Source: Tyzzerella sp. (GTDB lineage Bacteria > Bacillota > Clostridia > Lachnospirales > Lachnospiraceae). From it: a stretch of 34,542 nucleotides of DNA. Position 1 is the stretch's first letter; each line of letters begins with the position of its first letter. Positions 11,292-21,106 of this stretch are shown here, one piece after another. A program made the translations under genes and the position numbers. Location: NCBI GenBank assembly GCA_017410145.1, contig JAFQRJ010000002.1:1-34542 (forward strand). The letters run 5' to 3'. The notes below the pieces were generated by a model. It was given only the letters and a program-made list of their open reading frames with translations. It made no database searches and was not told the origin of the DNA.

Positions 11292-11546
11292 ATGCCAGTT
11301 ATATCACGTTTTGAAGGCATAGTAATCAAAATGTACTTTAGGACAAAGGAACATAACCCGCCACATATCCATGCAATATATGGAGAGTACATAGGTGTGT
11401 TTTCTTTAAAAGATGGAGAGATGTTTCAAGGAGATTTACCCATTAAAGAGCAAAGGCTTGTAAAAGATTTTATTGATTTTTATCGAGATAAATTGCTTGT
11501 TATGTGGGTAACACAAAAGTTTGAAATGTTGCCATCAGTTGAATAG
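11292..11546 (+). CDS. DUF4160-family protein, predicted toxin-like partner
   Basis: This 84-residue protein resembles DUF4160. It has the typical motif EHNPPHIHAIYGEY (about residues 15-28), rich in His and acidic residues, followed by a helix ending WVTQ. The frame is open upstream, but the ATG at 11292 is preceded by AAAGGAGAAG and gives the family's usual start. It is followed 18 nt later by a DUF2442-HTH protein. Such DUF4160/DUF2442 pairs are common in bacteria and have been suggested as toxin-antitoxin modules; the activity is unproven and the toxin label is an inference. Confidence 0.7.
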   Translation: MPVISRFEGIVIKMYFRTKEHNPPHIHAIYGEYIGVFSLKDGEMFQGDLPIKEQRLVKDFIDFYRDKLLVMWVTQKFEMLPSVE

Positions 11547-11564
11547 TTTTAAGGAGGGAGCAGA

Positions 11565-12035
11565 ATGACACATAGAATTACACAAGTGGAAACATTAGAA
11601 AAATATATCATAATAGCAGTATTTCAAAATGGGGTGGAAAAGAAATATGATATGTGTCAACTGTTTTGCACTATTCCACAGTTTGAAGCACTAAAGGTGG
11701 AACCTGGTTTGTTTGAACAAGTAAGAGTGGATGTTGGTGGCTATGGAGTATCATGGAATGATGAACTTGATTTGTCAGCTGAAGAAATCTGGCAAAATGG
11801 AGTCATAACAGGGAAGACTTATGAATTTGATATAAAAACTTCCGTCGGTGATAAGTTGACTAGTGCGCGGGAATTAGTTGGTATGAAACAAACAGAACTA
11901 GCAGAAATCACCGGAATATATCAAGCTGATATAAGCAAAATAGAAAGAGGTTTGGCGAATCCCTCGCTACTTACTCTTAAAAGGCTTGCTGATGGAATGG
12001 GAATGAAACTGAATATTGAATTTATTGCAAAATAA
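11565..12035 (+). CDS. DUF2442 domain fused to an XRE-type HTH, predicted antitoxin/autorepressor
   Basis: This 156-residue protein has two parts. Residues 1-85 resemble DUF2442 (GGYGVSWNDELDLSAEEIWQNG is typical). Residues 95-150 form an XRE-type helix-turn-helix (MKQTELAEITGIYQADISKIE, then RGLANPSLLTLKRLADGMG). AAGGAGGGAG precedes the ATG. The fusion of the partner domain to a DNA-binding domain, together with the palindrome in the promoter, fits an autoregulated two-gene module. DNA binding is strongly supported by sequence; the antitoxin role is inferred. Confidence 0.75.
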   Translation: MTHRITQVETLEKYIIIAVFQNGVEKKYDMCQLFCTIPQFEALKVEPGLFEQVRVDVGGYGVSWNDELDLSAEEIWQNGVITGKTYEFDIKTSVGDKLTSARELVGMKQTELAEITGIYQADISKIERGLANPSLLTLKRLADGMGMKLNIEFIAK

Positions 12036-12040
12036 ACTGA

Positions 12041-12071
12041 AACGGCATGGTACACGAAATACCATGCCGTT
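12041..12071 (-). terminator. Hairpin terminator; arms shared with the hairpin at 17274-17322
   Basis: AACGGCATGGTA (12041-12052) pairs perfectly with TACCATGCCGTT (12060-12071) around a 7-nt loop. It separates the convergent DUF2442-HTH and XRE genes. The T-rich flank is on the minus-strand side, so it mainly ends the XRE transcript. Confidence 0.75.
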
Positions 12072-12080
12072 ATATATGTT

Positions 12081-12299
12081 CTACCGTTTTTTGTTTGATA
12101 TTCCTAATAGGTAATCGGCTGAAACGTCGTACAGTTTACATAATGAGATAAGATGCCGAATAGGTAGCTCGTTTGCCCCTCGTTCGTAGCGAGCATACAT
12201 TGTCTGGGATGTGCCCAAATAATCTGCTACATTTTGTTGAGTTTTATCTGAATCTTCGCGAAGGTCTCGCATTCTTTGAATATAATTTGTACTGCTCAT
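12081..12299 (-). CDS. XRE-family transcriptional regulator
   Basis: This 72-residue protein is essentially one Cro/C1-type helix-turn-helix domain. TQQNVADYLGTSQTMYARYE (about 20-39) is the HTH core, followed by LPIRHLISLCKLYDVSADYLLG, the usual XRE C-terminal helix pair. AAGGAT precedes the ATG at 12299. It is divergent from the secreted amidase-cohesin gene, and the 150 bp between them carries repeated inverted sites. It probably represses itself and/or the secreted genes. Confidence 0.88.
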   Translation of the reverse strand: MSSTNYIQRMRDLREDSDKTQQNVADYLGTSQTMYARYERGANELPIRHLISLCKLYDVSADYLLGISNKKR

Positions 12300-12345: not shown

Positions 12346-12408
12346 TTTACTATTGAAAATAGTAAAGAAGTGTACTAAAATACATTTATCTAGTAAATAA
12401 GTGTACTA
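12346..12408. promoter_or_regulatory. Repeated operator sites between the XRE gene and the amidase-cohesin gene
   Basis: TAGTAAAGAAGTGTACTA (12360-12377) and TAGTAAATAAGTGTACTA (12391-12408) match at 17 of 18 bases with starts 31 bp apart, about three helical turns. Each is an inverted repeat TAGTA-N8-TACTA. A third site, TTTACTAT ... ATAGTAAA (12346-12366), overlaps the first. They are likely binding sites for the divergent XRE regulator. No clear -35/-10 pair was found, so promoter positions are left open. Confidence 0.65.
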
Positions 12409-12447: not shown

Positions 12448-15414
12448 ATGAAAGAGATTAAAAAGAGTATATCTATGATTTTGGTAGTGGTTATGTTGGC
12501 TTCGGTTGTTCCGTTTGAGGCAAGCACAGTGAAGGCGGCATCATATAATGCCTCGGCGGCTATTACATATGCTAACTCCCATTGGAATGATGGAGTAGGG
12601 CTATGTGCAGAATTTGTTTCAAGATGCTTGGCGGCAGGTGGTGTAGGTATACCAAACAAATCGTATTATTCATCATCAAAACAATCATATGAAAATAATA
12701 GCGGTACATTAGAAGGATATACGAATCCATACAAATGTTCAGCGGCATTACTATTGTATCTATCAGAAAATTATACAATTATAACTAATCCATCTATAGC
12801 AGATATTAGTCTCGGTGATGTTGTTTTTATGTACGGTGGCAGCAGTGGGCAATGGCGAGACGGACATGTGGGAATTGTTATCAATGAAGATGGTGGAGCA
12901 CCAATTTATGCTGCGCATAATAAAGCTACAAATTCAGGAAAATTCAGTAGTAATTATCCATGTACATATGTTGCTAAAATGAACGGTAATTCATCATTAA
13001 AGGAATCCACCAAATTTTCAACCCCAATAAAAGCTTATACATTAGCGACAGGGAAAACAACTGTATATAGCTCTATTGGTGGAAGTGCTAAGGTCAATAA
13101 GATTTATGATACCGACCGCTGTACCATAAATGCAATTTACGAAAATGGATGGTGTAAAGTCACGTTTCCATTAGATGCCGGTGGGACAGAAACTGGTTAT
13201 GTAAAAACAGCAGTATTCTTTAATCCGGATTATGACACTTTTAATGCTACAGCAAGTAAGAAAATGTCTGTTTATACAAGAAGTGATTTGAGTACAGAGA
13301 TTGGAAAAATAGCAGCAGATACAAAACTGCAAGTGGTTGGTCACACTTCTAAAGCGGTGCAAGTTTTATATCCTCGTACAAGTGGAGGATATGGCGTTGC
13401 TTGGGTTCCGATTTCTGCATTTACATATACCATTGCTTACAATGCAAACGGTGGAAGTGGGACTATGGCAAGTACTACCGCAAAGTATAATGGAACAATG
13501 ACGCTTTCGGCTAACAAGTTTGTCAAGACTGGTTATACATTTAAAGGGTGGAATGTATACAGAAGTTCTGATAAGACATGGTATGTCAAGGGAATAGGGT
13601 GGCAAACATCCAGTCAAATTAGCTCCAATGGATATACGAAAAGTGTATATAAGGATGGGCTAAGTTGCACTTTTGACAGAAGTTGGGTAAAAGGTAGTGC
13701 GACAACTGATACCTTGACTTTTTATCCTGTATGGGAGGCAAATGTGCTTTATGTGTATTTTCATGCAAATGGGGCGGCAATTGACTCAGATACATACAAG
13801 TTAAGTAACGAACTCGTTTGTTACCAAAGCGATGGAAGCAAGGTATATAACAAATGGGTATATAATGAGAAGAAGAAAAATGGTTTAACTAATGTAACCA
13901 CGCTTGGTTTGACCAAGACAGGACATACATTTGCAGGATGGGGAAGCTCAGCAAGTGGTGGCACAATATTTGACCAAAATGATACAGATTTAGTACCAAC
14001 CAGTATTACTTCAGATATTAAAACTGGAAGTTGCAAAAAAACACTTTATGCAATATGGAAACCGAATACATATGCAGTTAAATATAACGCTAATGGTGGA
14101 ACGGGAGCACCTTCTACTCAGACTAAAACATATGGGACTGCGTTGACTCTTAGTAGTACTACTCCAACAAGAATTGGTTATACATTTGTTGGATGGGGAA
14201 CATCAAGTGATACAACTACAGCAAAATATCAACCAGGAGCAAGTTACACGTCGAATAAGGCTGCAACCTTATATGCTGTTTGGGAAATTGATAATTCTCA
14301 AACTACTCATACACATGAATGGGCTTCAGATTACACAGTAGATATCGAACCGACCTGTACAGAGGAAGGTGTAAAATCCATACATTGCGTAACTTGTAAT
14401 GAATCAACTAAGGTCACAACGATTCCGGTTGCAGAACATACTTTGAAAGAAATAGTTGTTCGGGAAGCAAGTTGTAAAACGGTAGGACAAAAAGCATTTA
14501 TGTGTTCTGTATGTGATTCGATAACAGACCAAGCAGAAATTCCAAAGGAGGAACACCATTATGTTACAACTGTGATAACAGAGGCAACTTGTTCCCAAAA
14601 AGGAGTCAGAGCTGATGTTTGTGCCGAATGTGGAACTCAGGAAAATGAGATAGTAATTTCAAAAGATGATCATGAATTTGGAGAGTGGACAGTAGTTACA
14701 GAAGCAACAGCAAGTGGTGATGGAGTGGAAAGTAGAAAATGTGTTGCTTGTCAACACGAAGAAACAAGACCAATACACTATGTTCCAGTTTATGACGAAA
14801 GTTCGTCAATGATAACATTAGAACATGTACAGGTCAATGGCCAACAAGAGATAAAAATGTCTGTTGATTTGGCAAACAATCCTGGTTTTTGTGCTCTCAA
14901 TATAGCATTTATATATGATGCAAATTATTTTACACTTAAGTCTATTCAAAATAAAGTTCCGTCAATGGTTATGACTGCTGATACAGCGATTGTTTGGGAC
15001 TCAGCAGAAGATTATTTATCAAATGGTCAACTTGCAGAATTGACTTTCGAGGTTTCAGAGGATACACCAAGTGAGAAATATGAAATCCAGATTATATTCA
15101 TGGGAGCATCAAATAGTAATTTTGAAGAAGTACCTATGTTAGGAGTTAGCGGTACGATAACGGTGAATTCGGTAGTATACGGAGATGCAAACGGAGACAA
15201 ACAGGTTACGACTGTTGACTTGGCAATGATTAGAAAGTATTTGGCAAGCAAGGATCCGATTACAGGAGAATCTTCTATTGTAGTTCAAGGAGGGGCTGAC
15301 TGTAATGGTGATGCATCTGTAGGAACAGTAGACCTAGCAATGATAAGAAAGTACTTGGCCAGTAAGGATCCAATTACAGGTGAGTCATCCATTGTCTTAG
15401 GACCAAAATCATAA
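12448..15414 (+). CDS. Secreted multidomain protein: amidase (papain-fold), SH3-like, InlB B-repeats, cohesin and dockerin
   Basis: This 988-residue exported protein has a signal peptide with likely cleavage after VKA (residue 30). Residues 31-175 form an Amidase_6/CHAP-like domain: CAEFVSRCL puts the probable nucleophile at C53, and H140 (GHVGIV) or H157 (AAHN) is the partner. Two SH3-like segments follow at about 189-255 and 265-327, then three InlB-type repeats (NANGG ... TGYTFKGW) to about 612. Cys/His-rich repeats occupy 620-777, a type I cohesin 785-905, and a dockerin with two Ca-binding loops (DANGDKQVTTVD, DCNGDASVGTVD) 912-988. The two dockerin halves are almost the same. It likely cuts peptidoglycan or peptides and docks into a cohesin-based assembly. 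RBS AAAAGGG. Confidence 0.85.
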   Translation: MKEIKKSISMILVVVMLASVVPFEASTVKAASYNASAAITYANSHWNDGVGLCAEFVSRCLAAGGVGIPNKSYYSSSKQSYENNSGTLEGYTNPYKCSAALLLYLSENYTIITNPSIADISLGDVVFMYGGSSGQWRDGHVGIVINEDGGAPIYAAHNKATNSGKFSSNYPCTYVAKMNGNSSLKESTKFSTPIKAYTLATGKTTVYSSIGGSAKVNKIYDTDRCTINAIYENGWCKVTFPLDAGGTETGYVKTAVFFNPDYDTFNATASKKMSVYTRSDLSTEIGKIAADTKLQVVGHTSKAVQVLYPRTSGGYGVAWVPISAFTYTIAYNANGGSGTMASTTAKYNGTMTLSANKFVKTGYTFKGWNVYRSSDKTWYVKGIGWQTSSQISSNGYTKSVYKDGLSCTFDRSWVKGSATTDTLTFYPVWEANVLYVYFHANGAAIDSDTYKLSNELVCYQSDGSKVYNKWVYNEKKKNGLTNVTTLGLTKTGHTFAGWGSSASGGTIFDQNDTDLVPTSITSDIKTGSCKKTLYAIWKPNTYAVKYNANGGTGAPSTQTKTYGTALTLSSTTPTRIGYTFVGWGTSSDTTTAKYQPGASYTSNKAATLYAVWEIDNSQTTHTHEWASDYTVDIEPTCTEEGVKSIHCVTCNESTKVTTIPVAEHTLKEIVVREASCKTVGQKAFMCSVCDSITDQAEIPKEEHHYVTTVITEATCSQKGVRADVCAECGTQENEIVISKDDHEFGEWTVVTEATASGDGVESRKCVACQHEETRPIHYVPVYDESSSMITLEHVQVNGQQEIKMSVDLANNPGFCALNIAFIYDANYFTLKSIQNKVPSMVMTADTAIVWDSAEDYLSNGQLAELTFEVSEDTPSEKYEIQIIFMGASNSNFEEVPMLGVSGTITVNSVVYGDANGDKQVTTVDLAMIRKYLASKDPITGESSIVVQGGADCNGDASVGTVDLAMIRKYLASKDPITGESSIVLGPKS

Positions 15415-15435
15415 ATTAAAGGGAGAAAATGAACA

Positions 15436-16998
15436 ATGATAACAAATAAAAAAATATGGGCTATAGTATTGAGTATATTAATGTTAATTGCAACCTTTAT
15501 TCCAAGCCCTTATACAAATGCAGCAGGTGAATTTACAATAACAGGAAACTCTGTAAATGTTAAGGCGGGAAAAGAAGTTTCTGTAAATGTCAGCTTAGTA
15601 AACAATCCAGGTATTTCTGCAATTAATTTATACTATACTTACGATACAAATTATTTAACTTTAAAGAACGTAGAAAATAAGGTTTCTAAATTCACAATGA
15701 CAAACGATGTAACAACGGTGTGGGATGCGGCTAGTAATTACACAGAAGACGGAATACTTGCTACTTTGACTTTTGAAGTTGCAAAAGCAGCACCTTCCGG
15801 AGATTATACAGTTGGAATCAACTTTTTATCTGCATCAAATGATAGTTTCCAATCTGTTACAGCACAGACAACAGCGGCAACCATTACTGTAGAAGCGTTA
15901 CCTGTGGCTACGACTGGCGTGACTCTAAATAAAAACAGCGTTTCTCTTGTCACAGGCGACATGGAAACCTTAATTGCTACGGTGACTCCGGACAATGCAA
16001 CAAACAAAGCAGTTTCATGGAAAAGCAGTGACACAACGGTTGCAACAGTTGACAGTAATGGTAAAGTTACAGCAATGAAGAAGGGGACGGCGACTATTAC
16101 AGTAACCACGGAAGATGGTAGTTTTACCGATACTTGTGAGGTGAGTGTTGCTTGTTCTCATGCAAATACTACTGTTCATCCTGCTGTTGAATCTACATGT
16201 TTGATTCAGGGAAATAACACATATACAACATGTAATGATTGTGGTGTTATAGTATCTGGTTCAGATGCAAAACTTCCTTTTGACTCTCATAAAGGTGGTA
16301 CCGCTACCTGTAAAGATAAAGCTGTATGTATCGTGTGTAATAAAGCCTATGGTGAATATGCAGGACATCAACTTACCAATCACCCTCATAACGAATCTAA
16401 TCACAGTAAGGCAGGTAATATTGAGTATTGGACCTGTGATATTTGTAACAAGTTTTTCAATGATGCAGCAGGTAAAAATGAGATAGAACAAAAGGATACA
16501 GTTATAGACAAAGAACCACATAGTTATAACACGGAATGGTCGTATAACGGAACACAGCATTGGAAAGAGTGTGCTTGTGGAGAACAGACAGAGTTAGCAA
16601 ATCATCAATTTGACAATGACTGCGATACTACATGTAATGCGGGCTGTGGATACACGCGTTCAATTACACATCAATGGATGTCCGCTTACTCTACGGGTGA
16701 TAACAAGCATTGGTATGAATGTGAAATTTGTGGAGAGAAAAAAGACGAAGGCAACCATTCTGGTGGTACAGCAAGCTGTAAAGAAAAGGCATTGTGTGAA
16801 GTGTGTAATAAATCTTATGGTGAACTCAAAGCACATGTTTTAGTAGAAAAAGTGGATAATAGATATTTGAAAGCAGAAGCAAATTGTGTTGCAAAAGCTG
16901 TGTATTACAAGAGTTGCTCAGTTTGTGGCACTGCAAGTACAGAAACATTTAAAACAGGTGAGTTAGATTCTAGTTTCCCTTTGTTATATATGTTCTGA
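15436..16998 (+). CDS. Secreted cohesin protein with Ig-like domain and Cys/His-rich repeats, possibly truncated
   Basis: This 520-residue exported protein has a signal peptide (cleavage near TNA, residue 29). Its type I cohesin at about 30-155 is clearly homologous to the cohesin of the upstream protein (NNPG, Y.Y.TNYLTLK, NKV, VWDAA, LTFEVA). A Big_2 Ig-like domain lies at 156-236 (SWKSSDTTVATVDSNGKVTA). Then come repeats with paired cysteines (CX2C) and His to the end. There is no dockerin, LPXTG or membrane anchor. It stops inside a repeat with an unrelated tail (DSSFPLLYMF), so it may have lost its C-terminus. GGGAG lies 10 nt before the ATG, 21 nt after the upstream gene. It probably serves as a docking partner for dockerin proteins. 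Confidence 0.8.
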   Translation: MITNKKIWAIVLSILMLIATFIPSPYTNAAGEFTITGNSVNVKAGKEVSVNVSLVNNPGISAINLYYTYDTNYLTLKNVENKVSKFTMTNDVTTVWDAASNYTEDGILATLTFEVAKAAPSGDYTVGINFLSASNDSFQSVTAQTTAATITVEALPVATTGVTLNKNSVSLVTGDMETLIATVTPDNATNKAVSWKSSDTTVATVDSNGKVTAMKKGTATITVTTEDGSFTDTCEVSVACSHANTTVHPAVESTCLIQGNNTYTTCNDCGVIVSGSDAKLPFDSHKGGTATCKDKAVCIVCNKAYGEYAGHQLTNHPHNESNHSKAGNIEYWTCDICNKFFNDAAGKNEIEQKDTVIDKEPHSYNTEWSYNGTQHWKECACGEQTELANHQFDNDCDTTCNAGCGYTRSITHQWMSAYSTGDNKHWYECEICGEKKDEGNHSGGTASCKEKALCEVCNKSYGELKAHVLVEKVDNRYLKAEANCVAKAVYYKSCSVCGTASTETFKTGELDSSFPLLYMF

Positions 16999-17008
16999 AA
17001 AGTAAAAT

Positions 17009-17265
17009 CTACGGTGTGCCTTGCTAAATATAATCATCTCACCGTAATTTATATTGAAAGAAGAAAACGTAATACAGTAAATTACGGTGTATTTCAAGAA
17101 AGAGCACTTCTACGCCGTAACTCGCCCCAAAACCAGTAGAAGCAATCCAAACAACTACGGTGCAATGCACTCAAGAGCACTTCTACACCGTAACTCGCCC
17201 TAAAACCAGTAAAAGCAATTCAAGCAATTACGGTGCAATCCCCAAAAAGCAACATTACGCCGTAA
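17009..17265. repeat. Array of four tandem stem-loops (TTACGGTG ... CRCCGTAA)
   Basis: The intergenic stretch holds TACGGTG-type arms in strict alternation with their complements: forward at 17009, 17082, 17155 and 17228; reverse at 17040, 17111, 17184 and 17255. Each forward/reverse pair can form a hairpin with a roughly 20-nt loop. The middle units repeat at 73 bp (AAGAGCACTTCTAC starts at 17100 and 17173), with loops and linkers also conserved. The linkers contain ACTCGCCC and AAAACCAGTA. No poly-T follows any stem, so these are not terminators. Function unknown. Confidence 0.8.
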
Positions 17266-17273
17266 AAATCAAA

Positions 17274-17322
17274 AACGGCATGGTATCACCCCGAGATGTA
17301 GGGAGGTAAATACCATGCCGTT
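17274..17322 (-). terminator. Hairpin terminator with the same arms as at 12041-12071
   Basis: AACGGCATGGTA (17274-17285) and TACCATGCCGTT (17311-17322) are the same arms as at 12041-12071, here with a 25-nt loop. On the minus strand it is followed by TTTGATTTTT, which makes it a plausible terminator for the antiporter gene. Confidence 0.7.
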
Positions 17323-17336
17323 TCTAATGTAATTGT

Positions 17337-18683: not shown

Positions 18684-18721
18684 GATTAAACGAGGGTTGT
18701 ATTTTGTACGGAGGAAGAAAG

Positions 18722-21106
18722 ATGTATCAAGTAAAGAAGAGAGATGGAAAGATTGCAGATTTTAATCTGCAAAAGATAGCAGCAGCTATCACGAAAGCAT
18801 TTGAAGCACAAGAAATGGACACACATCCGGATATTATCGATATGCTTGCATTGAAAGTAACAGCAGACTTTAGTGCAAAGATTAAAGATGGATTTGTACG
18901 TGTGGAAGACATCCAGGATAGTGTAGAATCTGTGCTCATCCAAGCAGGATATAGCGAAGTTGCGAAGGGCTATATCTTGTATCGTAAACAAAGAGAAAAG
19001 ATTCGTAACATGAAGTCAACGGTTCTTGATTATAAAGAAATCGTGGACAACTATGTAAATGTCAATGACTGGCGCGTAAAAGAGAACTCTACAGTAACAT
19101 ACTCTGTAGGTGGTCTTATCTTAAGTAACTCCGGAGCCATTACAGCAAACTACTGGCTGTCAGAGATTTATGATGAAGAAATCAGCAATGCTCATAGAAA
19201 TGCTGATATTCACATTCATGATTTATCTATGCTTACAGGGTACTGTGCAGGATGGTCACTGAAACAATTAATTCAAGAAGGACTTGGCGGAGTAGTTGGA
19301 AAAATTACATCTGCACCGGCGAAACATTTATCTACGTTGTGTAACCAGATGGTAAACTTCTTAGGCATTATGCAAAATGAATGGGCAGGAGCACAGGCAT
19401 TTTCTTCATTTGATACTTATCTTGCACCATTTGTAAAAGTAGATAACTTAAACTATGAACAAGTAAAGAAATGTGTGGAATCATTTGTATACGGTGTAAA
19501 CACACCGAGCCGTTGGGGAACACAGTCACCATTTACTAACATTACTTTAGACTGGACAGTACCAAACGACCTTGCTGAACTTCCGGCAATCGTTGGCGGC
19601 AAGGAAATGAATTTCAAATACAAAGATTGTAAGAAAGAAATGGATATGGTAAACAAAGCATTCCTTGAAATTATGATTGAAGGCGATGCAAACGGACGTG
19701 GATTCCAATATCCAATTCCAACATATTCAATTACAAGAGACTTTGACTGGTCAGACACAGAAAACAACCGCTTGTTGTTTGAAATGACAGCAAAATACGG
19801 TACTCCATATTTCTCAAACTATATCAACAGCGATATGGAACCAAGTGATGTAAGAAGTATGTGCTGCCGTCTGAGATTAGATTTGCGTGAACTCCGTAAG
19901 AAATCAGGTGGATTCTTCGGTAGTGGTGAAAGCACAGGTTCTGTTGGTGTTGTTACAATCAACATGCCAAGAATTGCATACCTTTCAAATGATGAGAGCG
20001 AATTCTACAGAAGACTTGATCGTTTGATGGATATCTCAGCACGTTCACTGAGTGTAAAACGTTCTATCATTACGAAACTTTTGGATGAAGGTTTATATCC
20101 ATATACTAAGAAATATCTTGGAACATTTAACAACCACTTCTCAACAATCGGTTTGGTTGGTATGAATGAAGCTGGTCTTAATGCAAAATGGTTACAAGCA
20201 GATATGACACATGAGAAAACACAAGAATTCTCAAAACAAGTGTTGAATCACATGAGAGAAAGACTTTCTGATTATCAGGAAATGTATGGCGACCTTTACA
20301 ACTTGGAAGCTACTCCTGCTGAGTCAACAACATACCGTCTTGCAAAACATGATCTTGCAAGATATCCGGATATTATCACAGCAGCAGAAGAAGGCGGAGC
20401 TCCATACTATACAAACAGCTCACATCTACCGGTTGGATATACATCTGATATTTTTGAAGCACTTGATATTCAAGATGAACTTCAGACATTGTATACATCA
20501 GGAACTGTATTCCACGCATTCTTAGGAGAGAAACTTCCTGATTGGAAGGCAGCAGCAGACTTGGTTCGCAAGATTGCTGAAAATTATAGGTTGCCATATT
20601 ACACAATGTCACCAACATATTCTATCTGTAAAGACCACGGATATTTGACAGGTGAGCAATATACGTGTCCACATTGTGGTGGTGCAACGGAAGTTTACAG
20701 CCGTATTACAGGTTACTACAGACCGGTGCAGAACTGGAATGATGGTAAATCTCAGGAATACAAAGAACGTAAAGTCTACGACATTGCAAACTCAAAGTTG
20801 ACAAGATGCGAATGTGAAGAAACAGAGGATGTGACTCCAGGAAATGTTGCAGAGTCACCTGTAGCAGATGCACCAGTTAACAAGACCATGTTATTTACAA
20901 CAAAGACATGCCCGAACTGCAGAATCGTATGTGCAATGTTAGAAGATGCCAATATTGATTATGAAAAGATCGATGCAGATGAAGCGCCGGAATTGGTAGC
21001 AGAGTTCGGTATTAGACAAGCACCTACTTTGGTAGTTGTAAAAGATGGACAAGCTGCAGTGTATGCAAATGCATCAAGCATTATCGGATATATTGGGGAG
21101 ATTTAA
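18722..21106 (+). CDS. nrdD: Anaerobic (class III) ribonucleoside-triphosphate reductase with fused thioredoxin-like domain
   Basis: The enzyme reduces NTPs to dNTPs in anaerobes using a glycyl radical. It is 794 residues long from the ATG at 18722, which follows GGAGGAAGAAAG; an in-frame TTG at 18704 has no good site. Residues 3-92 are the allosteric ATP-cone and about 100-700 the catalytic barrel. Zinc-site cysteines include C649 and C652 (CPHC), and the glycyl radical is about G664 in RITGYYRPVQNW. A linker of acidic and Pro residues leads to a thioredoxin/glutaredoxin-like domain at about 718-794 with CPNC (C730, C733). The fusion suggests a redoxin, rather than formate, as reductant. The activase NrdG is at 10329. 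Confidence 0.94.
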   Translation: MYQVKKRDGKIADFNLQKIAAAITKAFEAQEMDTHPDIIDMLALKVTADFSAKIKDGFVRVEDIQDSVESVLIQAGYSEVAKGYILYRKQREKIRNMKSTVLDYKEIVDNYVNVNDWRVKENSTVTYSVGGLILSNSGAITANYWLSEIYDEEISNAHRNADIHIHDLSMLTGYCAGWSLKQLIQEGLGGVVGKITSAPAKHLSTLCNQMVNFLGIMQNEWAGAQAFSSFDTYLAPFVKVDNLNYEQVKKCVESFVYGVNTPSRWGTQSPFTNITLDWTVPNDLAELPAIVGGKEMNFKYKDCKKEMDMVNKAFLEIMIEGDANGRGFQYPIPTYSITRDFDWSDTENNRLLFEMTAKYGTPYFSNYINSDMEPSDVRSMCCRLRLDLRELRKKSGGFFGSGESTGSVGVVTINMPRIAYLSNDESEFYRRLDRLMDISARSLSVKRSIITKLLDEGLYPYTKKYLGTFNNHFSTIGLVGMNEAGLNAKWLQADMTHEKTQEFSKQVLNHMRERLSDYQEMYGDLYNLEATPAESTTYRLAKHDLARYPDIITAAEEGGAPYYTNSSHLPVGYTSDIFEALDIQDELQTLYTSGTVFHAFLGEKLPDWKAAADLVRKIAENYRLPYYTMSPTYSICKDHGYLTGEQYTCPHCGGATEVYSRITGYYRPVQNWNDGKSQEYKERKVYDIANSKLTRCECEETEDVTPGNVAESPVADAPVNKTMLFTTKTCPNCRIVCAMLEDANIDYEKIDADEAPELVAEFGIRQAPTLVVVKDGQAAVYANASSIIGYIGEI

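What the first reader, a model, noticed from the sequence alone, without database searches (positions are those of the whole stretch)
12448..16998. Miniature cohesin/dockerin system built on an amidase rather than a glycosidase
One secreted protein carries an amidase-type domain plus both a cohesin and a dockerin, so it can in principle act as enzyme, adaptor and scaffold and could chain with itself. The next gene supplies a second, homologous cohesin. Neither protein has a carbohydrate-active domain, unlike cellulosomes and amylosomes. Both dockerin halves have T-V at the recognition positions, allowing two binding modes. The role may be wall remodelling, bacterial competition or adhesion.
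Basis: partly seen in the sequence, partly recalled or inferred. Interest (0 to 1): 0.75.

Follow-up and report, generated by a model that had tools for sequence, protein, structure and literature searches.

The report
Cohesin-dockerin amidase gene pair
A gut bacterium carries a two-gene module whose secreted amidase-like protein bears both halves of the cellulosome 'plug and socket', next to a second socket protein; similar modules, some carrying enzymes of cell-wall-cutting families, recur in related bacteria, so the plug-and-socket trick is probably used here to hold surface enzymes rather than to digest plant fibre.

Summary
P1 (12448-15414) has an Amidase_6/CHAP cysteine-hydrolase module, surface-type repeats, a cohesin and a symmetric T-V/T-V dockerin; P2 (15436-16998) has a sister cohesin (43% identity). 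Neither has a catalytic carbohydrate-active domain by Pfam. The pair is not alone: the genome has 9 dockerin and 8 cohesin hits, among them a glucosaminidase-dockerin gene followed by a cohesin gene. P2-type cohesins occur in 10 of 397 family genomes (own included); 7 of 10 loci outside the window have a dockerin in the same or next gene, 3 of them with wall-hydrolase-like payloads (C39-like peptidase, NlpC/P60 plus M14, phage-tail lysozyme). In three cassettes the two cohesins are sisters. Four or five of 11 loci have a divergent Cro/CI-type regulator (background 2 of 385 genes). Most likely a regulated accessory cassette docking a wall-type hydrolase onto cohesins. Not shown: binding (fold test inconclusive), activity, anchoring (P2 has no detectable anchor). 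Peptidase-cohesin-dockerin proteins and a 'lyticome' idea are in print, so this is a new variant, not a new kind.

The parts
12041..12071 (.). palindrome, arms AACGGCATGGTA/TACCATGCCGTT, left end of the cassette (terminator-like)
   Evidence: exact pattern found only twice in the 1.89 Mb assembly (67.8% complete), once on each side of P1-P2; reversed-pattern control 0
12081..12299 (-). 72-aa Cro/CI-type regulator gene, divergent to P1
   Evidence: ORF; HTH_3 46.0 bits, cut-off 23
12360..12408 (.). two 18-nt operator-like copies TAGTAAA(G/T)AAGTGTACTA in the divergent promoter region
   Evidence: repeat D9; promoter-like hexamers at 12353-12381, where such sites are no more frequent than in shuffles
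12448..15414 (+). P1, 988 aa: signal peptide - Amidase_6/CHAP - SH3-like region (by eye) - InlB-type repeats x3 - His/Cys repeats (by eye) - cohesin - dockerin
12538..12999 (+). Amidase_6/CHAP cysteine-hydrolase module; C53, H140, H157/N158
13003..13437 (+). region homologous to parts of the L139 NlpC/P60 and M14 proteins, SH3-like by eye
   Evidence: E 2.6e-19 and 2.9e-19; no Pfam or PDB hit names it
14803..15168 (+). P1 cohesin
15169..15411 (+). P1 dockerin, two T-V calcium repeats
15436..16998 (+). P2, 520 aa: signal peptide - cohesin - Big_2 - His/Cys repeats (by eye); no anchor found
15517..15900 (+). P2 cohesin, sister of the P1 cohesin
17273..17323 (.). second copy of the palindrome, right end of the cassette

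Best explanation
P1-P2 is an accessory, regulated two-gene cohesin-dockerin cassette that assembles a secreted cell-wall-type hydrolase on a non-catalytic cohesin partner. Shown: domain content, conserved catalytic residues, a dockerin whose two halves are kept alike by selection, two sister cohesins, recurrence of the cassette type (some with wall-hydrolase-like payloads), and a divergent Cro/CI-type regulator gene. Inferred: the P1 dockerin binds the P2 cohesin (and, since the two cohesins are sisters, probably also the P1 cohesin of another molecule), so P2 acts as base or cap and P1 can chain head to tail; the Amidase_6/CHAP module cuts peptide or amide bonds of peptidoglycan with C53-H140-N158 while the SH3-like region holds wall material; the regulator represses the divergent promoter. 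Whether the target is the cell's own wall or that of competitors is open.
For: Domains. H140 and H157/N158 (and C53) are invariant in the 21 rows of A4, P1 included; the Cys was part of the motif by which I picked rows, so only the other residues are independent evidence. Dockerin halves: 14 nt differences, 0 aa. Cohesin sisters: P1/P2 99/98, L141 pair 100/95, L137 pair 94/83. P2-type cohesins: 10 of 397 family genomes, own included; dockerin in the same or next gene at 7 of 10 loci outside the window, 2 of the other 3 cut on one side by a contig end. Wall-hydrolase-like payloads at 3 of these 7: C39-like peptidase with Coh-Doc plus a Coh gene (L137), NlpC/P60 plus Coh beside M14-dockerin (L139), phage-tail lysozyme with Coh-Doc-Coh (L141). 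Amidase_6 plus dockerin in L091, L175, L176; Amidase_6-like gene (under cut-off) beside a three-cohesin gene in L087. Same genome: glucosaminidase-like dockerin gene followed by a cohesin gene; a dockerin-then-cohesin pair of that kind is complete in 4 further relatives (L070, L071, L075, L077) and cut by a contig end in L072 (their enzyme parts were not scanned). Regulator: Pfam HTH domain at 5 of 11 P2-type loci; 4 of 11 by the rule that gives 2 of 385 background genes.
Against: The only binding test was inconclusive: P1 dockerin joined to P2 cohesin through the intergenic read-through gave pTM 0.53 and dockerin pLDDT block means of 46-71. P2 has no LPXTG, SLH or C-terminal hydrophobic segment, unlike partners at L136, L137, L138, L140, L142. 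Payloads at L136, L138, L140, L142 are not wall hydrolases by Pfam (DUF6273, GDSL, LRR, Glug). Most relatives of the hydrolase module show no dockerin: 24 of 25 loci (ORFs of 120 aa or more, some cut by contig ends) and 10 of 13 places. The P1 cohesin-dockerin has no counterpart in the 9 other genus genomes searched, several of them incomplete (4 have only weak dockerin matches), so no orthologue shows conservation. Position 9 of the calcium loops is T and G, not the N/D usual in dockerins (recalled).
Confidence: 0.55

Rival explanations
1. A general surface-display cassette: the cohesin-dockerin pair attaches whatever payload is fused to it, and the P1 hydrolase module acts on protein or host/mucus peptides or serves adhesion, not on peptidoglycan.
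For: Payloads of sibling cassettes are mixed: GDSL, DUF6273, LRR, Glug. P1 has three InlB-type repeats and P2 a Big_2 domain, as surface proteins do. The C39 family of the L137 payload is better known for cutting peptides (recalled).
Against: P1 residues 2-325 align with the NlpC/P60 protein of L139 (E 1.7e-19). Of the 4 weak PDB profile hits (E 0.005-0.1), 3 are CHAP lysin or LytN wall hydrolase; the best is a 'putative cytoplasmic protein'.
Confidence: 0.2
2. The P1 dockerin mainly docks onto other cohesins of the cell, for example that of contig C5, and P2 has another partner.
For: The genome has 8 cohesin hits and P2 lacks an anchor.
Against: P2-type and C5-type cohesins fall on different sides of a branch with 100/99 support, and the dockerin recognition pairs differ (T-V against A-Q), which suggests insulation. 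P1 and P2 are adjacent and co-directional.
Confidence: 0.1
3. The P1 cohesin is no longer a socket but a structural support for its own dockerin, as X modules are for some dockerins; only P2 binds.
For: P1 cohesin has a longer branch than P2 (1.02 against 0.39), scores under the Pfam cut-off, and sits a few residues before the dockerin with a moderately confident joint model (pTM 0.77).
Against: It keeps the cohesin fold and 43% identity to P2; a cohesin directly before the dockerin also occurs in L137, L140 and L141.
Confidence: 0.15
4. The cassette is decaying: P2 has lost its C-terminal anchor and the pair no longer works.
For: P2 ends, as I read it, inside a His/Cys repeat with no anchor, no continuation in other frames, next to 73-nt repeats; no counterpart of the P1 cohesin-dockerin in 9 other genus genomes.
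Against: Both reading frames are intact and the dockerin repeats show only synonymous differences.
Confidence: 0.1

Closest known systems
ScaO/ScaP of Pseudobacteroides cellulosolvens and Acetivibrio cellulolyticus (PMC5590126, passages seen)
   Same: A predicted peptidase module with a single cohesin and a dockerin in one protein.
   Different: Those of P. cellulosolvens carry several PPC modules and belong to a large cellulosome system; here the module is Amidase_6/CHAP with InlB-type repeats, in a two-gene cassette with its own regulator gene. No sequence comparison was made.
RflaF_05439 of Ruminococcus flavefaciens (PMC3573020, abstract and section 13 read)
   Same: NlpC/P60-superfamily cysteine peptidase modules with a C-terminal dockerin; said there, as unpublished, to bind the cell-surface ScaE cohesin.
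   Different: Part of a cellulosome; two tandem peptidase modules and an X-dockerin, no cohesin in the protein.
'Lyticome' idea and dockerin-bearing cell wall hydrolases (PMC6403190, one passage)
   Same: Proposal of an extracellular complex for bacterial lysis, based on lysozyme activity in a Ruminococcus cellulosome and dockerin-bearing wall hydrolases.
   Different: A concept in a review; its primary sources were not read (one look-up by a DOI from memory was not held). Here the genes form small cassettes with no sign of a cellulosome in P1-P2.
Mucinolysome of Limousia and cohesin-dockerin toxin complexes of Clostridium perfringens (PMC12997984, passages)
   Same: Cohesin-dockerin complexes outside cellulosomes in Firmicutes, with a sortase-anchored cohesin and some dockerin-peptidases.
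   Different: Centred on mucin-degrading glycoside hydrolases with multi-cohesin scaffoldins.
Glucosaminidase-like dockerin / cohesin gene pair of the same genome (contig C5, locus L018)
   Same: Wall-hydrolase-like protein with C-terminal symmetric dockerin followed directly by a cohesin gene.
   Different: Different cohesin group, a membrane segment in the partner (by eye), no cohesin on the enzyme, and kin in other genomes of the genus and family.

Membership tests
Cellulosome / amylosome | Carbohydrate-active enzymes or carbohydrate-binding modules on the dockerin protein or scaffold | tested here: not met
   Pfam lists no catalytic or binding one in P1 or P2 at E <= 1; one hit under cut-off to a non-catalytic hyaluronate lyase domain in P2. 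Elsewhere in the genome one dockerin protein has GH32, DUF2961, GDSL and BNR domains.
Cellulosome / amylosome | Scaffoldin with several cohesins | tested here: not met
   P1 and P2 have one cohesin each; the 8 cohesin hits of the genome lie in 8 different open frames, but the assembly is only 67.8% complete.
Dockerin type I (PF00404) | Over the curated cut-off with two calcium-loop repeats | tested here: met
   46.1 bits, cut-off 22.9; both loops found.
Cohesin (PF00963) | Over the curated cut-off and cohesin fold | tested here: met
   P2 34.8 bits. P1 19.3 bits in the whole protein, under 24.1, 24.2 bits in the genome search; fold met by model and Foldseek.
Cohesin-dockerin pair | Binding of the P1 dockerin to the P1 or P2 cohesin | tested here: inconclusive
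   Joined-chain fold pTM 0.53, dockerin part poorly modelled.
Amidase_6 (PF12671) / CHAP | Over the curated cut-off with conserved Cys-His | tested here: met
   28.5 bits, cut-off 23.2, module scanned alone; 19 of 21 rows of A4 match Amidase_6 at E <= 0.01; C, H, H/N invariant in those 21 rows (the Cys was in the motif used to pick them). CHAP stays under its cut-off; Amidase_6 is not listed in the whole-protein scan.
Amidase_6 (PF12671) / CHAP | Peptidoglycan amidase or endopeptidase activity | not testable with these tools
   No assay; the Pfam name itself says 'putative'.
ScaO/ScaP-type peptidase scaffoldins | Peptidase plus one cohesin plus one dockerin in one protein | tested here: met
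   Architecture only.
ScaO/ScaP-type peptidase scaffoldins | PPC modules | tested here: not met
   No PPC domain among the Pfam hits of P1.
ScaO/ScaP-type peptidase scaffoldins | Sequence kinship | not tested
   Their sequences were not fetched.

The most novel reading that the evidence does not exclude
P1 polymerises head to tail through its own cohesin and dockerin into a fibre of wall hydrolases, with P2 (in relatives an SLH- or sortase-anchored cohesin) as its base or cap; such hydrolase fibres, under Cro/CI-type or recombinase control, are an accessory weapon or wall-remodelling organelle spread among Lachnospiraceae - a dedicated 'lyticome'.
Probability: 0.17. Interest if true: 0.8.

Novelty: new variant of a known kind. 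Interest (0 to 1): 0.52.

Why it matters
Cohesin-dockerin assembly is known mainly from plant-fibre, starch and mucin degradation. A recurring small cassette in which the payload is in several cases a peptidoglycan-type hydrolase, and in which two sister cohesins share one symmetric dockerin, would extend this assembly principle to bacterial wall cutting and make the 'lyticome' suggestion directly testable with a few small protein modules. It also gives new candidate orthogonal cohesin-dockerin pairs from gut Lachnospiraceae.

Tried and rejected
Isolated miniature system: rejected, 9 dockerin hits (8 over cut-off) and 8 cohesin hits (7 over cut-off) in the genome. Against that: the dockerin search at E <= 1 also rings in 9 of 14 control genomes (over cut-off in 2) and the cohesin search in 2 of 14 (over cut-off in 1), so the weakest hits may be chance; of 7 other dockerin proteins scanned whole, 3 fall just under the Pfam cut-off (22.5, 21.3, 20.7 bits), and one of the 9 (L025) was not scanned. 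Plasmid or phage origin: no plasmid hit for P1 cohesin-dockerin; 5 phage records matched parts of P1, of which two were opened: MT837133 holds genes that look bacterial, among them the cohesin + Amidase_6-like pair; MT837130 matched only in the repeat region and was not used further. Empty site: only G398 has a close homologue (64%) of the flanking exchanger and its neighbours differ, so insertion could not be shown. The 351 bases behind P2 have only one short further match in the genome (40 bases). Dockerin-cohesin complex by joined-chain folding: inconclusive. An alignment with dockerin-only rows came out misaligned and was not used, nor were A3, A5 and A6 folded. SH3-like part against the PDB: nothing of note. 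The regulator profile was trained on the five cassette regulators themselves, which favours them; by one fixed rule the count is 4 of 11 (L137 missed because its ORF was called too long), by Pfam and eye 5 of 11; the Fisher test printed used 5 of 11 although that script's rule found 4; for 4 and 5 of 11 the p-values are 4.8e-6 and 1.2e-7. Both background hits (L094, L107) are themselves at CHAP-type genes. My ORF picking is greedy and missed one CHAP gene at first (L177, found). Papers: listings show no title on this cassette; I read only the passages and sections named, and most subscription papers are not held.
Full report
What is there. The two ORFs are intact, co-directional and 21 nt apart. 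P1 has a signal peptide (by eye; hydrophobic N-terminus), an Amidase_6/CHAP module, a region I read as SH3-like, three InlB-type repeats, His/Cys repeats (by eye), a cohesin and a C-terminal dockerin; P2 has a signal peptide, a cohesin, Big_2 and His/Cys repeats. The Pfam score of the P1 cohesin is under the cut-off (19.3 against 24.1), but 43% identity to the P2 cohesin, a confident model (pLDDT 91.7, pTM 0.77) and Foldseek hits to solved cohesins (E 2.5e-11 for 6kgf_A) settle it. The hydrolase module passes the Amidase_6 cut-off when scanned alone (28.5 against 23.2), and 19 of the 21 rows of alignment A4, P1 included, match Amidase_6 at E <= 0.01; in the scan of the whole protein Amidase_6 is not listed. 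C53, H140 and H157/N158 are invariant in the 21 rows. A4 is a selection of the relatives found, and the Cys was part of the motif by which I picked them, so the His and Asn columns are the independent evidence.

The dockerin is under selection to stay symmetric. Its halves carry T-V at positions 10-11 and share 24 identical residues over DNA that differs at 14 of 72 bases; random placement gives 9.4 amino-acid changes on average and never fewer than 4 in 20,000 trials. Of the 8 dockerins of this genome that I compared (of 9 hits; in two of them my pattern found only one loop), only P1 and the C5 protein have the same pair in both halves, and these two are the only ones whose contig also holds a cohesin hit, directly behind them.

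The genome. The window is a whole contig of a 1.89 Mb, 67.8% complete assembly with 9 dockerin hits (8 over cut-off) and 8 cohesin hits (7 over cut-off). The controls of these searches ring in 9 of 14 genomes for dockerin (over cut-off in 2) and 2 of 14 for cohesin (over cut-off in 1), so the weakest hits are doubtful. The closest parallel is on contig C5: SH3 - glucosaminidase-like part (SagB model 38.7 bits, far under its cut-off of 425; PDB kin mostly autolysins and glucosaminidases, best E 4.6e-7) - cadherin-like - dockerin, then a cohesin protein with a membrane segment seen by eye. A dockerin gene followed by a cohesin gene of this kind is complete in 4 other relatives opened (L070, L071, L075, L077) and cut by a contig end in L072; their enzyme parts were not scanned. 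In the same genome a further cohesin-like protein lies three genes behind a LytR-CpsA-Psr gene; in L073, L074, L076 and L079 a similar-looking gene is the direct neighbour (Pfam run only for L069).

Relatives of P1. The hydrolase module is found in 12 of 397 family genomes, 13 places, and at 25 loci of a named-genome scan, mostly Clostridia by title and one Polyangiaceae. Three members scanned carry ricin-type lectin or SLH domains instead. Dockerin occurs with it in 3 of the 13 places (window, L175, L176) and at 1 of the 25 loci (L091, whose next gene also has a dockerin). A cohesin by my own profile stands in the gene two before the CHAP gene at one locus, L097, not confirmed by Pfam. In L087, from a record labelled bacteriophage but holding genes that look bacterial, an Amidase_6-like gene (17.1 bits, under cut-off) follows a three-cohesin gene. 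The module thus has interchangeable attachment parts, and cohesin-dockerin is one of them.

Relatives of P2. A profile of the two cohesins hits 10 of 397 family genomes, own included. At 10 loci outside the window, 7 have a dockerin in the same or next gene; of the other 3, two are cut on one side by a contig end and one (L144) has three cohesins and no dockerin. Payloads: C39-like peptidase with Coh-Doc and an adjacent Coh gene (L137, the same layout as P1-P2), NlpC/P60 with Coh beside an M14 carboxypeptidase with Doc (L139), phage-tail lysozyme with Coh-Doc-Coh (L141); and, not wall-related by Pfam, GDSL (L138), DUF6273 (L136), LRR (L140), Glug (L142). C39 and NlpC/P60 are only just over their cut-offs (24.1 against 22; 23.6 against 23). 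P1 residues 2-325 align with the L139 NlpC/P60 protein (E 1.7e-19), and P2 aligns with the L137 partner in both cohesin and His/Cys parts (low-complexity filter off). Partners are anchored by SLH (L140, and L143 without visible dockerin), LPXTG (L142, over cut-off) or hydrophobic tails (L136, L137, L138); P2 shows none.

Cohesin kinship. P1 and P2 cohesins are sisters (99/98), as are the two of L141 (100/95) and, with less support, of L137 (94/83); those of L140, L144 and L087 do not form single groups. One dockerin with two sister cohesins, one in cis and one in trans, suggests that both are meant for it. This is inference.

Regulation and ends. A divergent 72-aa HTH_3 gene lies about 150 nt upstream of P1 with two 18-nt operator-like copies between. 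Pfam finds such regulators at 5 of 11 P2-type loci; one fixed rule counts 4 of 11 against 2 of 385 background genes. Resolvases stand upstream of the cohesin genes of L141 and L144. A palindrome found only twice in the assembly flanks the cassette. The P1 cohesin-dockerin has no counterpart in the 9 other genus genomes searched. Together this reads as an accessory, perhaps transferred, cassette; transfer itself was not shown.

What is not shown. Binding, activity, secretion and attachment. The joined-chain fold of P1 dockerin with P2 cohesin was inconclusive (pTM 0.53). P2 may be truncated.

Known and new. Peptidase plus cohesin plus dockerin in one protein (PMC5590126, passages), an NlpC/P60 dockerin protein said to dock on a surface cohesin (PMC3573020, abstract and section 13), dockerin-peptidases (PMC2930009, passages; PMC12997984, passages) and the lyticome proposal (PMC6403190, one passage) precede it. 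What I did not find in the listings searched is the small cassette form, its recurrence with different wall hydrolases, the sister cohesins and the linked regulators. I therefore call it a new variant of a known kind.

Noticed in passing
L018:4878-8542 (own contig C5); L070, L071, L072, L075, L077: Glucosaminidase-like protein with C-terminal dockerin directly followed by a cohesin gene with a membrane segment (by eye); dockerin-then-cohesin pairs of this kind recur in the genus and other genera.
   Followed up: partly
L069:3060-8365; also L073, L074, L076, L079: Cohesin-like protein near a LytR-CpsA-Psr (LCP) gene in a recurring neighbourhood; Pfam does not see the cohesin, kinship rests on my profile and tree.
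   Followed up: partly
L141:6322-7026 and L144:6857-7495: Serine recombinase genes directly upstream of cohesin genes in two genera, which may mean phase variation.
   Followed up: no
window 12041-12071 and 17273-17323: A palindrome found only twice in the assembly, once at each end of the P1-P2 cassette with its regulator.
   Followed up: partly
window 17057-17202: Two 73-nt direct repeats (74% alike) just behind the abrupt end of P2.
   Followed up: partly
window 11292-12035: DUF4160 gene followed by a DUF2442-HTH gene, a toxin-antitoxin-like pair (my reading) just outside the cassette.
   Followed up: no
window 18704-21106: Class III ribonucleotide reductase-like protein with a glutaredoxin/thioredoxin-like C-terminal extension (seen in the translation; families recalled, not searched).
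   Followed up: no
L087 (MT837133.1): Record labelled bacteriophage that holds genes that look bacterial, among them a three-cohesin protein next to an Amidase_6-like protein.
   Followed up: partly
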